Shown here piece by piece: positions 1,196 through 51,501 of a stretch of 64,000 bases of DNA. Position numbers and translations under genes: made by a program. The notes beneath the pieces are model-generated. The model searched no databases. It saw only the letters and a list, made by a program, of their open reading frames with translations, and was not told the origin of the DNA. The stretch covers positions 248,001 to 312,000 of the forward strand of contig WYBC01000038.1 of the NCBI GenBank assembly GCA_011526085.1, read 5' to 3'. The stretch's first letter is position 1, and the number at the start of each line of letters is the position of its first letter. The stretch comes from Lysobacter sp. GTDB lineage: Bacteria > Pseudomonadota > Gammaproteobacteria > Xanthomonadales > Xanthomonadaceae.

Positions 1196-1255
1196 TCGCG
1201 GGACTGTCCGCGTCCTCGAACCCGCAGGCCGAGGCGGCGCGTGCCGCCGGTCCGC

Positions 1256-1291
1256 GCCTTCCCCCGCGTGCGGGGAAAGGCCGGCATGCGG
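1256..1291. repeat. Intergenic palindromic repeat, CCTTCCCCCGC type
   Basis: In the gap between convergent genes lies an imperfect palindrome, CCTTCCCCCGC-GTGCGGGGAAAGG, followed by CCGGCATGCGG. A very similar element (CCTTCCCCCGCGCGCGGGGG then AAGGCCGGGATGG) sits at 51464-51501, so this is a dispersed repeat rather than a chance hairpin. It may also act as a transcription end signal between the convergent genes. Confidence 0.6.
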
Positions 1292-13363: not shown

Positions 13364-13392
13364 CGGCCGAAGCGCATCAAGCGCCGTTTCGC

Positions 13393-13423
13393 GTAGCCCG
13401 GGTAGAGCGCAGCGAAACCCGGG
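13393..13423 (+). repeat. REP-like element, GTAGCCCGGG family, copy 1
   Basis: GTAGCCCGGGTAGAGCGCAG followed by CGAAACCCGGG: a GTAG head and an imperfect palindrome (CCCGGGT ... ACCCGGG). The inverted partner is at 13528-13558. Confidence 0.7.
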
Positions 13424-13527
13424 GCTGTTGACGAAGTGCCGGAATTTCAATCGTCATCCGTGTAGTGCCTGTTCTTGCGAGAATCCGTCCGCACCGAGCG
13501 CCTTCTGACTGACATGCGCGTCATCGT

Positions 13528-13558
13528 CCCGGGTTTCGCTGCGCTCTAACCGGGCTAC
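13528..13558 (-). repeat. REP-like element, GTAGCCCGGG family, copy 2 (inverted)
   Basis: Read on the minus strand it is GTAGCCCGGTTAGAGCGCAG followed by CGAAACCCGGG, matching the copy at 13393-13423 at all but about one position. Its GTAG head overlaps the TAG stop of the truncated ORF at 13555-13746, which places the junction exactly at the repeat end. Confidence 0.75.
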
Positions 13559-13746
13559 GACACTTTTGAAATCTGGTTGTAGATTCGGTCGAGCATCGAG
13601 CCCAAGAAGATCTGCTCGTCGACTCTTTCGCAATAGATGCCGGCGTCTTCGCAGGCGCCCTTGATCCCGAATTGGTAGATGTCGGTGAAGCCGGCGTCGA
13701 AAGGCATCAGAACGAAGCAAAAAGGCTTTGGTTTCGTGACTTGCAC
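13555..13746 (-). pseudogene. Truncated TIR-like/nucleotide-binding-like protein, N-terminal fragment
   Basis: A 63-codon fragment beginning at a GTG. Residues about 7-60 (FCFVLMPFDAGFTDIYQFGI, then GACEDAGIYCERVDEQIF and LDRIYNQISK) resemble the first strand-helix-strand unit of a family of TIR-like or deoxyribosyltransferase-like proteins, whose next segment would normally be a DVVVADMTG strand. That continuation is missing: after ISK the frame reads V-S and stops at TAG, which belongs to the GTAG head of an inverted REP element. Codon use is less GC-biased than in neighbours, suggesting acquired DNA. I read it as a remnant; the family name is by recollection. Confidence 0.5.
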
Positions 13747-32720: not shown

Positions 32721-34523
32721 ATGATGACGACGATGGTTGAAGTGAAGGTCCCCGACATCGGCGACTTCGAAGGCATTCCGGTGATCGAGATCCTGGTGAA
32801 GCCCGGCGACACCGTGGCGAAGGACCAGGGCCTGGTCACGCTCGAGTCGGACAAGGCGACGATGGAAGTGCCGTCGTCCGCCGCGGGAGTGGTGAAGGAA
32901 CTGAAAGTGAAGCTCGGCGACAGCGTGTCCGAGGGCAGCGTGATCGCGGTCCTCGAGAGCGCCGACAGCACCGCTGCGGTCGTAGGAGGGGCTTCAGCCC
33001 CGAGCCCTGCCGCACCGGCCCCTGCGCCCGCTGCAGCACCTGCGCCGGCCGTCGCCTCGCCCGCACCCACCGCCGCCGCATCGAGCGGCCGCAAGGCCGA
33101 CATCGAATGCCGCATGCTGGTGCTCGGCGCCGGTCCCGGCGGCTACACCGCCGCGTTCCGCAGCGCCGACCTCGGCCTCGACACCGTGCTGGTCGAGCGC
33201 TACGCCGCGCTCGGCGGCGTGTGTCTCAATGTCGGCTGCATTCCATCGAAGGCGCTGCTGCACGCCGCCAACGTCATCGACGAAGCCGCGCATGCGAAGG
33301 ATTACGGCATCGATTTCGGCGCGCCGAAGATCGCGCTCGACACCCTGCGCGGCTACAAGGAAAAAGTCGTCGGCCAGCTCACCAAGGGCCTGAGCGGGAT
33401 GGCGAAGCAGCGCAAGGTGCGGGTGGTGCAGGGCGCCGGCCGGTTCGTGTCGCCGAACGAAATCGAAGTCGCCGGCGACGCCGGCACCCAGCTCGTCCGC
33501 TTCGAGCAATGCATCATCGCCGCCGGTTCGCAGCCGGTGAAGCTGCCGGCGTTTCCATGGGTCAATGGGGATGTTGGCGATCCGCGGGTGATGGATTCGA
33601 CCGACGCGCTCGAACTCAAGGACATCCCGAAATCATTGCTGGTCGTTGGCGGCGGCATCATCGGCCTGGAAATGGCGACGGTGTATCGCGCGCTCGGCAG
33701 CGCGGTGACCGTGGTCGAGTTCATGGACCAGATCATGCCCGGCGCCGACGCCGATCTGATCAAGCCGCTCGCCGACCGCCTGAAGAAGCAGGGCGTGGCG
33801 ATCCATCTGAAAACCAAAGTCGTCGAGGCCAAGGCGACGAAGGCCGGCATCGTCTGCGGCTTCGATGGCGCCAGCATTCCGGCCAGCGACACCTACGAGC
33901 GCGTGCTGGTCGCCGTGGGCCGCGCGCCGAACGGAAAGAAGATCGATGCCGACAAGGCCGGCGTCGCCGTGACCGAGCGCGGCTTCATCGAGGTCGACCG
34001 GCAGATGCGCACCAACGTGCCGCACATCTTCGCCATCGGCGACATCATCGGCCAGCCGATGCTCGCGCACAAAGCCACCCACGAGGGCAAGCTCGCCGCT
34101 GAAGTCGCGGCGGGCGAGAAGAAAGAGTGGGTCGCGCGGGTCATCCCGTCGGTGGCCTACACCGATCCGGAAATCGCCTGGGTCGGCGTCACCGAGACCG
34201 AGGCGAAGGCCAAGGGTCTGAAGATCGGCGTCGGCAAGTTCCCGTGGGCCGCTTCGGGTCGCGCGATCGGCATCGGCCGCACCGAAGGCTTCACGAAACT
34301 CATTTTCGACGAGGCCAGCCATCGCATCATCGGCGCCGGCATCGTCGGCGTGCATGCCGGCGATCTGATCGCCGAAGTCGCGCTCGCGATCGAGATGGGC
34401 TGCGAGGTCGCCGACATCGGCCACACGATCCATCCGCACCCCACGCTCAGCGAATCGGTGGGCATGGCGGCGGAAGTCTTCGATGGCACGATCACCGATC
34501 TCTACATCCCGAAGAAGAAGTGA
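32721..34523 (+). CDS. lpdA: Dihydrolipoyl dehydrogenase (E3) with N-terminal lipoyl domain
   Basis: A 600-residue enzyme. The lipoyl domain (residues 1-80; Lys45 in TLESDKATMEVP) is followed by an Ala/Pro linker (about 82-125) and a full E3: FAD motif LVLGAGPGGYTAAF, redox disulfide Cys168/Cys173 in GGVCLNVGC, NAD motif LLVVGGGIIGLEM and the His/Glu pair in HTIHPHPTLSESV. It reoxidises dihydrolipoyl groups of the adjacent E2. Fusion of a lipoyl domain to E3 is known in some beta/gammaproteobacteria. Residues 88-95 are encoded by a REP-like sequence identical to intergenic copies elsewhere (see repeat feature). The Shine-Dalgarno is GGGGA. Confidence 0.95.
   Translation: MMTTMVEVKVPDIGDFEGIPVIEILVKPGDTVAKDQGLVTLESDKATMEVPSSAAGVVKELKVKLGDSVSEGSVIAVLESADSTAAVVGGASAPSPAAPAPAPAAAPAPAVASPAPTAAASSGRKADIECRMLVLGAGPGGYTAAFRSADLGLDTVLVERYAALGGVCLNVGCIPSKALLHAANVIDEAAHAKDYGIDFGAPKIALDTLRGYKEKVVGQLTKGLSGMAKQRKVRVVQGAGRFVSPNEIEVAGDAGTQLVRFEQCIIAAGSQPVKLPAFPWVNGDVGDPRVMDSTDALELKDIPKSLLVVGGGIIGLEMATVYRALGSAVTVVEFMDQIMPGADADLIKPLADRLKKQGVAIHLKTKVVEAKATKAGIVCGFDGASIPASDTYERVLVAVGRAPNGKKIDADKAGVAVTERGFIEVDRQMRTNVPHIFAIGDIIGQPMLAHKATHEGKLAAEVAAGEKKEWVARVIPSVAYTDPEIAWVGVTETEAKAKGLKIGVGKFPWAASGRAIGIGRTEGFTKLIFDEASHRIIGAGIVGVHAGDLIAEVALAIEMGCEVADIGHTIHPHPTLSESVGMAAEVFDGTITDLYIPKKK
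32982..33003 (+). repeat. REP-like element inside the lpdA linker
   Basis: GTAGGAGGGGCTTCAGCCCC then GA (32982-33003) matches, over the full element, the intergenic copies at 43309-43331, 43345-43367 and 43396-43418. It is read as V88-G-G-A-S-A-P-S of LpdA without disturbing the frame, in the flexible region between lipoyl and FAD domains. Confidence 0.8.
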
Positions 34524-40293: not shown

Positions 40294-40361
40294 GTAGGGC
40301 GGGCCCCGGCCCGCCTCCGGATGCGTCGTAATCGGTCATGGCGGGCTTGAGCCCGCCCTAC
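40294..40361. repeat. Inverted REP pair, GTAGGGCGGGC family, between atpA and atpG
   Basis: Copy 1 (plus) 40294-40314: GTAGGGCGGGCCCCGGCCCG then CC. Copy 2 (minus) 40340-40361 reads GTAGGGCGGGCTCAAGCCCG then CC. Both begin GTAG and enclose a GC-rich palindrome. The same family occurs in the atpD-atpC gap. Confidence 0.8.
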
Positions 40362-43308: not shown

Positions 43309-43418
43309 TGCAGGAGGGGCTTCAGCCCCGATCTTTTCAGAAACTCGGGGCTGAAGCCCCTCCTACAGAAACGATGATCCGTAGATTTGAAAAGATCGGG
43401 GCTGAAGCCCCTCCTACA
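43309..43418. repeat. Three REP copies, GTAGGAGGGGCTTCAG family
   Basis: Copies at 43309-43331 (plus; CAGG in place of TAGG), 43345-43367 (minus) and 43396-43418 (minus), each GTAGGAGGGGCTTCAGCCCC-like. The flanks of copies 1 and 3 share GATCTTTTCA in inverse orientation. Copy 3 ends 3 bp before the stop of the GtrA gene. A copy of the same family lies inside lpdA. Confidence 0.8.
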
Positions 43419-47344: not shown

Positions 47345-47486
47345 TGCAGGAGGGGCTTCTGCCCCGAGCGTTTTGTCGGCAGCAGGCACGATCGAAACCG
47401 GGGTTTCATTCCCGTCAGCCGTAGGCACGGCCCGGTTGTCGTCGTACTTCAAGTTCTATCGGGGCCGGCCTGAAGCCCCTCCTACG
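47345..47486. repeat. Inverted REP pair, degenerate GTAGGAGGGGC family
   Basis: Copy 1 (plus) 47345-47367: TGCAGGAGGGGCTTCTGCCC then CGA. Copy 2 (minus) 47459-47486 reads CGTAGGAGGGGCTTCAGGCC then GGCCCCGA. The copies are about 90 bp apart, between convergent glmU and the sensor-kinase gene. Copy 2 carries extra bases compared with the lpdA/atp copies. Confidence 0.7.
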
Positions 47487-51463: not shown

Positions 51464-51501
51464 GCCTTCCCCCGCGCGCGGGGGAAGGCCGGGATGGGGG
51501 C
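51464..51501. repeat. Palindromic repeat, CCTTCCCCCGC type, between two permease genes
   Basis: CGCCTTCCCCCGCGCGCGGG then GGAAGGCCGGGATGGGGG, a near-perfect palindrome similar to 1256-1291. It sits in the 58-bp gap between the permease genes and could attenuate transcription of the downstream permease and regulators. Confidence 0.65.

What the first reader, a model, noticed from the sequence alone, without database searches (positions are those of the whole stretch)
32982..33003. REP-like palindrome in frame inside the lpdA interdomain linker
GTAGGAGGGGCTTCAGCCCC-type sequence, otherwise intergenic (three copies at 43309-43418), encodes V-G-G-A-S-A-P-S between the lipoyl and FAD domains of LpdA. 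It looks like a repeat that landed in a tolerant linker and became coding sequence. REPs are normally excluded from genes.
Basis: seen in the sequence. Interest (0 to 1): 0.75.

Follow-up and report, generated by a model that had tools for sequence, protein, structure and literature searches.

The report
Mobile palindromes forming enzyme linkers
A short repeated DNA palindrome that normally sits between genes has become part of the flexible joint of a central metabolic enzyme, and in related bacteria the same few enzyme regions are often filled by other short palindromes.

Summary
GTAGGAGGGGCTTCAGCCCC (32982-33001) is an exact copy of a dispersed GTAG-type REP, in frame in lpdA, encoding VGGASAP between the lipoyl and FAD domains. 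It is not chance: shuffles give 0 matches, and five codons in a row are uncommon here. Two REP patterns give 68 clusters in this genome; 6 are inside genes by my test, in five multidomain enzymes (LpdA, MetG, an E2, a molybdopterin oxidoreductase, IcmF twice), between Pfam domain matches. In congeners, 19 of 19 forward coding copies found use one reading frame. The same sites are empty in some congeners and hold other palindromes in others; IcmF site 2 holds one of four kinds in all 9 genomes read in full. Across Lysobacteraceae, 18 of 76 LpdA linkers have long palindromes, against 1 of 50 AceF linkers and 1 of 380 FAD-part windows. Best reading: repeats keep inserting, and copies survive only in frame in permissive linkers. 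In-frame intragenic REPs are published (Rickettsia; Di Nocera 2013, who suggested linkers). Recurrence of several kinds at fixed sites, the single frame and the AceF contrast appear new.

The parts
32721..34523 (+). lpdA, dihydrolipoamide dehydrogenase with N-terminal lipoyl domain (600 aa)
   Evidence: translation; Pfam
32955..33113 (+). interdomain linker (residues 79-131) between lipoyl and FAD domains
   Evidence: Pfam boundaries; length and sequence variable in relatives
32982..33001 (+). GTAG-type REP core, in frame, encodes VGGASAP (with the next 7 nt VGGASAPSP, to 33008)
43310..43417 (.). cluster of three REP copies (+, -, -), no coding frame of 100 aa or more spans it
47346..47485 (.). 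two diverged copies in inverted orientation, probably intergenic by the same test

Best explanation
The element is a copy of a GTAG-type REP, a short non-autonomous palindrome thought to be moved by RAYT (REP-associated tyrosine) transposases, that inserted into the lpdA linker. Shown: an exact multi-copy repeat lies in frame between two domains; such REPs are rare in genes; those found in genes lie between Pfam domain matches and, for forward copies, in one reading frame; the same sites in relatives are empty or carry other palindromes. Inferred: insertion happens widely. Copies that break a domain, a frame or a stop-free reading are lost. Copies that land in a flexible linker in the frame giving small residues (GTA GGA GGG GCT TCA GCC CCG = VGGASAP) are tolerated and drift. 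Because few genes offer such sites, the same linkers are used again and again, so repeats have become raw material of these linkers.
For: Exact repeat, 0 in shuffles; 44 genome copies against 2 control. Uncommon codon run: GTA 1%, GGA 4%, GGG 7%, GCT 2%, TCA 1% of their synonyms. Census: 6 of 68 clusters in genes, between Pfam matches. 19 of 19 forward copies in one frame, though a second forward frame is stop-free (frames by hand). MetG linker occupied in 6 of 8 genomes (one decayed), empty in 2. E2 linker occupied in 7 of 10, by three kinds. IcmF site 1: REP pair in G009, another inverted repeat in G007 and G010, empty and same length in 6 of 10 read. IcmF site 2: occupied in 9 of 9 read in full, four kinds. 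LpdA long palindromes 18 of 76 against AceF 1 of 50 and FAD-part windows 1 of 380. At least 14 changes of state on a quick LpdA tree. RAYT-type genes in 10 of 11 genomes; 14 of 30 have GTAG-type repeats in the fetched locus.
Against: In this genome none of the 4 PF01797 matches has this REP family (A) beside it, and 2 of the 4 are below Pfam's cut-off; family A flanks matches only in congeners G003, G004 and G006. No clean empty site or target duplication was seen in lpdA. The parsimony count cannot tell gains from losses. Tolerance alone does not explain why AceF linkers, also Ala/Pro-rich and in the adjacent gene, are almost free of repeats. No transposase is shown for type B. Multi-copy status was not tested for two of the palindrome kinds (the CCTTCTCCCC and GGGGTCAGA types). 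The window's own copy has only 6-bp arms and is not among the 18 long palindromes.
Confidence: 0.85

Rival explanations
1. Coincidence or convergence: Ala/Pro/Gly-rich linkers in GC-rich DNA happen to look like palindromes.
For: Four of the 18 LpdA palindromes of 10 bp or more (L103, L123, L124, L133) look like ordinary GC-rich sequence; codon shuffles reach them in 3-13% of draws.
Against: Exact 20-mer, uncommon codons, type-B elements with CCCTCACCCC heads, and AceF linkers of like make-up at 1 of 50. 13 of 76 LpdA linkers reach the lowest shuffle class, 1 in 60 or fewer.
Confidence: 0.03
2. The linkers are insertion hotspots, not just permissive: an element already there attracts or is replaced by another, by transposase targeting of palindromes or by recombination.
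For: IcmF site 2 is occupied in 9 of 9 genomes read in full by four kinds. G009 IcmF site 1 shows a second GTAGGAGGGG head directly before a full REP. AceF linkers are nearly free.
Against: No other case of one element inside or beside another was examined; selection alone could also give recurrence.
Confidence: 0.25
3. The inserts are useful: they set linker length or flexibility, or slow translation between domains by rare codons and a hairpin so the first domain folds first.
For: Five uncommon codons in a row between two domains; recurrence in large multidomain enzymes.
Against: Local mRNA folding is not stronger than shuffles (z = -0.37); sequences and lengths vary freely; some congeners do without.
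Confidence: 0.08
4. Assembly or contamination artefact.
For: Draft genome in 48 contigs; G003 IcmF breaks at contig ends at site 2.
Against: The lpdA copy is mid-contig and in an open frame; coding repeats are also in the single-contig genome G004 and in the named isolate Lysobacter enzymogenes ATCC 29487 (type B).
Confidence: 0.01

Closest known systems
Intragenic GTAG REPs (Di Nocera 2013, PMC3733652)
   Same: GTAG-headed palindromes, inverted pairs, RAYT link, some inside ORFs, tRNA synthetases among them; different REPs at about the same place in recB of two Xanthomonas species; the authors suggest flexible linkers or loops would make them neutral
   Different: In the main text I searched (section 15 read, other passages by term) the words dehydrogenase, mutase and methionyl do not occur; I saw no linker control, no frame count and no site used by several families across a genus. 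Its supplement listing the cases was not read
Rickettsia palindromic elements (RPE), as described in PMC3733652; original papers recalled, not read
   Same: In-frame palindromes in genes that likely make functional proteins
   Different: Here short GTAG REPs and other repeats, in Lysobacteraceae, between Pfam domain matches in the cases found
Intrastrand triplex motifs (PMC4666352, passages seen)
   Same: Type-B repeats contain GAGGGCTGGGGTGAGGG, which the term search finds once in that paper (its context was not shown to me)
   Different: The paper reports the E. coli motif as always intergenic; here type B is in coding linkers. Triplex folding not tested
REPIN/RAYT systems (search listings only; mechanism recalled)
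   Same: Inverted REP pairs; RAYT-type matches beside families A, A2 and A3 in the genus
   Different: Usually described as extragenic (recalled)

Membership tests
GTAG-type REP | GTAG at one end of the palindrome | tested here: met
   GTAGGAGGGGCTTCAGCCCC
GTAG-type REP | stem 5-13 bp, loop 2-20 nt (Table 1 of PMC3733652 as shown) | tested here: met
   GGGGC-TTCA-GCCCC, folded as 5 bp with loop 4; 6-bp arms by symmetry
GTAG-type REP | many dispersed copies, often inverted pairs | tested here: met
   44 matches within 2 mismatches, many as inverted pairs
GTAG-type REP | mostly intergenic | tested here: met
   6 of 68 clusters in genes, two patterns together, by an open-frame and GC3 test
GTAG-type REP | linked to a RAYT gene | tested here: inconclusive
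   Family A flanks PF01797 matches in G003, G004, G006 but none of the 4 matches in this genome
Rickettsia-type coding palindromes (RPE-like behaviour) | in frame in genes for intact proteins | tested here: met
   ortholog rows show no stops inside; G003 IcmF is split over two contigs
Rickettsia-type coding palindromes (RPE-like behaviour) | homology to RPE sequences | not tested
   no RPE sequence was compared
Intrastrand triplex motif (type B only) | third strand pairs with the hairpin | not tested
   only a shared 17-mer string

The most novel reading that the evidence does not exclude
A small set of interdomain linkers are standing ports where populations of mobile palindromes live inside proteins. 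Several unrelated families replace each other there, and the repeats are shaped by selection so that one frame reads as a harmless, disordered linker peptide. Mobile repeats would then be both adapted to being translated and a main source of new linker sequence in these bacteria.
Probability: 0.25. Interest if true: 0.75.

Novelty: new variant of a known kind. Interest (0 to 1): 0.6.

Why it matters
Repetitive extragenic palindromes are named for staying outside genes. Here they are a recurrent source of protein linker sequence, in the same enzymes again and again and from several kinds of repeat. That gives natural replicate experiments on what a linker will tolerate, on how mobile repeats are filtered by selection, and on how new protein segments arise. 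It also offers an explanation for odd Pro/Ser/Gly-rich linkers in some Lysobacteraceae proteins.

Tried and rejected
Chance match or convergence: rejected by the exact repeat, codon use and controls. mRNA hairpin effect: local fold no better than shuffles. A clean insertion footprint in lpdA: the linkers are too variable to align. One of the 7 census candidates (C9:318819) was dropped because I read the frame as an extension upstream of a start codon. The census test (open frame with 40 codons on each side, GC3 at least 0.8) could miss genes of other composition. The repeat regex was written after seeing LpdA linkers, so I rely more on the palindrome-length test; one search's first version missed three linkers, and both miss the decayed G007 linker. 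A repeat-like stretch in a lipoyl-lipoyl linker of L104 is in none of the counts. Nine of the 80 named loci (L069-L077) were left out because their linkers are identical to those of the congeners; of the remaining 82 loci, 78 or 76 gave a usable LpdA linker and 50 an AceF linker. For the census, 5 of the 62 hits were left out as antisense reads of palindromes already listed. In the Fdh-like protein my markers read only 6 of 11 genomes; MetG was not found at the threshold in G003, G007 and G010, nor E2 in G002; IcmF sites were not read in G002. First passes that read one strand only or failed on spelling (5 of 10 E2, 9 of 11 Fdh-like) were redone. An AlphaFold job on the LpdA alignment had not finished at its last poll, so linker disorder is inferred, not modelled. 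Literature searches listed no report of LpdA or IcmF linkers with such repeats; the supplement of PMC3733652 that lists its intragenic cases could not be read.

Full report
Observation. The 20-mer GTAGGAGGGGCTTCAGCCCC is at 32982-33001 and is identical to two of the three intergenic copies near 43.3 kb, with one mismatch to the third. Six copies within 3 mismatches lie in the window and the shuffle mean is 0. lpdA starts at 32721 and the copy is in frame, encoding residues 88-94, VGGASAP, between the lipoyl (7-78) and FAD-binding (132-456) domains. The window lies in a 4.21 Mb draft genome. Its closest named LpdA relatives are mostly unclassified Lysobacteraceae and Lysobacter assemblies.

It looks like foreign DNA by codon use. 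In 14,564 codons from long coding-like frames of the window, GTA is 1% of valine codons, GGA 4% and GGG 7% of glycine, GCT 2% of alanine and TCA 1% of serine. These five follow each other in the repeat.

Census in this genome. Two REP patterns gave 44 and 62 matches. I merged 101 of them (5 antisense duplicates left out) into 68 clusters. Seven lie in coding-like frames and I accept six: LpdA; MetG; a lipoyl-containing 2-oxoacid dehydrogenase E2; a molybdopterin oxidoreductase (Fdh-like); and two places in IcmF (the name is recalled; the domains B12-binding, MeaB and methylmalonyl-CoA mutase are). Relative to Pfam matches, the MetG insert (500-522) is between the anticodon domain (ends 484) and the tRNA-binding domain (starts 558), the E2 insert (105-113) between lipoyl (ends 78) and E3-binding (starts 159), and the oxidoreductase insert (486-507) between the two molybdopterin domains, overlapping the start of the second (506) by two residues. 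IcmF site 2 is at 525-548 of the G009 protein; the MeaB match ends at 371 and the mutase match starts near 632, so the site is outside matched domains, but a short flexible linker is not proven there. The second IcmF place of this genome lies between the B12-binding and MeaB matches, judged by eye.

Presence and absence in the genus. LpdA linkers of 11 genomes: by eye 8 carry repeat-like DNA, 7 by the fixed regex: GTAG type in this genome and G002, and type B (CCCTCACCCCA..CCCTCTCCC with a hairpin), its relatives or a decayed form (G007) in the others. G005, G008 and G009 have plain Ala/Pro linkers. MetG (8 of 11 genomes found): occupied in 6, one of them decayed, and empty in G005 and G008. 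E2 (10 of 11 found): occupied in 7, by family A (G000, G006), a GTGGGAGCGGC variant (G003, G004) or type B (G001, G007, G010); empty in G005, G008 and G009. Fdh-like (found in 11, read in 6): occupied in 5, two of them by a reverse copy only. IcmF site 1 (10 read): a REP pair in G009, a GGGGTCAGAGTC inverted repeat in G007 and G010, a non-palindromic insert in G003, and six genomes empty with equal length. This is the cleanest evidence for insertion. IcmF site 2: occupied in all 9 genomes read in full, by four kinds: GTAGGGCGGGC (G000, G009), GTAGAGCGG (G001), type B or a close variant (G004, G005, G006) and a CCTTCTCCCC hairpin (G007, G008, G010). G003 breaks at contig ends there and G002 was not read.

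The repeats are repeats. Type B has 2 to 69 matches in 13 of 14 genomes with 0 in the reversed control everywhere (none in G002). The GTAG pattern has 2 to 127 matches in 13 of 14 genomes and its control 1 to 9; in G005 (2 against 3), G013 (0 against 2) and G008 (8 against 5) it is at or near control level. In this genome GTAGGGCGGGC has 62 matches against 0. The CCTTCTCCCC and GGGGTCAGA kinds were not counted genome-wide.

Reading frame. Of the coding GTAG-type forward copies found by a frame-blind pattern in hand-listed loci, 19 of 19 are in one phase (7 gene sites in 7 genomes, not all independent). Reverse copies use all three phases. By hand translation, the forward strand of family A has one frame with a stop (TAG), one reading CRRGFSP, and the one used.

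Wider family and controls. Among LpdA linkers of 82 loci (71 named relatives and 11 of the genus), 18 of 76 usable ones have a perfect palindrome arm of 10 bp or more, against 1 of 380 equal-length windows in the FAD part and 1 of 50 AceF linkers. Four of the 18 are probably ordinary GC-rich sequence, and the window's own copy, with 6-bp arms, is not among them. By repeat regex, which was written after seeing LpdA linkers, the numbers are 18 of 78, 1 of 468 and 1 of 50. In 48 loci with both linkers the repeat is in LpdA only in 11, in AceF only in 0, and in both in 1. A quick LpdA tree needs at least 14 changes of state (12 with the first regex); it cannot tell gain from loss.

Mobility. PF01797 (RAYT-type) matches are in 10 of 11 genomes; 3 of the 30 matches are below Pfam's cut-off. 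Of the 30, 14 have GTAG-type repeats in the fetched locus. Family A lies beside matches in G003, G004 and G006, and GTAGGGCGGGC beside one in this genome, which is a below-cut-off match. So a candidate mover for family A is seen in congeners but was not found here.

Mechanism. I think insertion is frequent and selection does the sorting: copies survive in genes only where an unstructured linker can take roughly 7-30 extra residues in a stop-free, small-residue frame. The AceF contrast shows that not every Ala/Pro linker will do. The swinging arm of AceF may be under more constraint (inference), or existing palindromes may attract new ones. An mRNA role is not supported.

What is known. Di Nocera 2013 (PMC3733652; I read section 15 and passages) reports GTAG REPs inside ORFs, cites the in-frame Rickettsia elements, notes tRNA synthetases in X. 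oryzae and different REPs at about the same place in recB of two Xanthomonas, and suggests that inserts may be neutral in flexible linkers or loops. Type B shares a 17-mer with PMC4666352 on intrastrand triplex motifs (passages only, not the one with the 17-mer), which reports the E. coli motif as always intergenic. So the kind is known. The recurrence of several kinds at the same sites across a genus, the single frame and the AceF control are, as far as my eight searches go, new.

Noticed in passing
L372 (G010:C165): IcmF site 2 holds four tandem copies of a unit encoding DIT[ED]KASATLASPSPR, an in-frame tandem expansion inside the inserted repeat.
   Followed up: no
window 40294-40361: Inverted pair of another REP family (GTAGGGCGGGC), with no coding frame of 100 aa or more across it.
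   Followed up: partly
window 13392-13559: Inverted pair GTAGCCCGGGTAGAGCGC..., outside coding frames by the same test, like repeats seen near two RAYT-type matches in congeners (L230, L236).
   Followed up: partly
window 1251-1281 and 51464-51500: Type-B-like (CCTTCCCCCGC hairpin) repeats, the second near a likely gene start on the minus strand.
   Followed up: partly
L235 (G000:C9:52358): A RAYT-type match (below Pfam's cut-off) with GTAGGGCGGGC repeats lies about 4 kb from IcmF, which carries two inserts of that same family.
   Followed up: partly
L274, L275 (G007, G010 IcmF): In-frame inverted repeat AAAAGTGGGGTCAGAGTC at IcmF site 1, a further repeat type in coding sequence.
   Followed up: no
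L099: LpdA of a record titled Tolypothrix campylonemoides groups with Lysobacteraceae; probably contamination in a cyanobacterial assembly.
   Followed up: no
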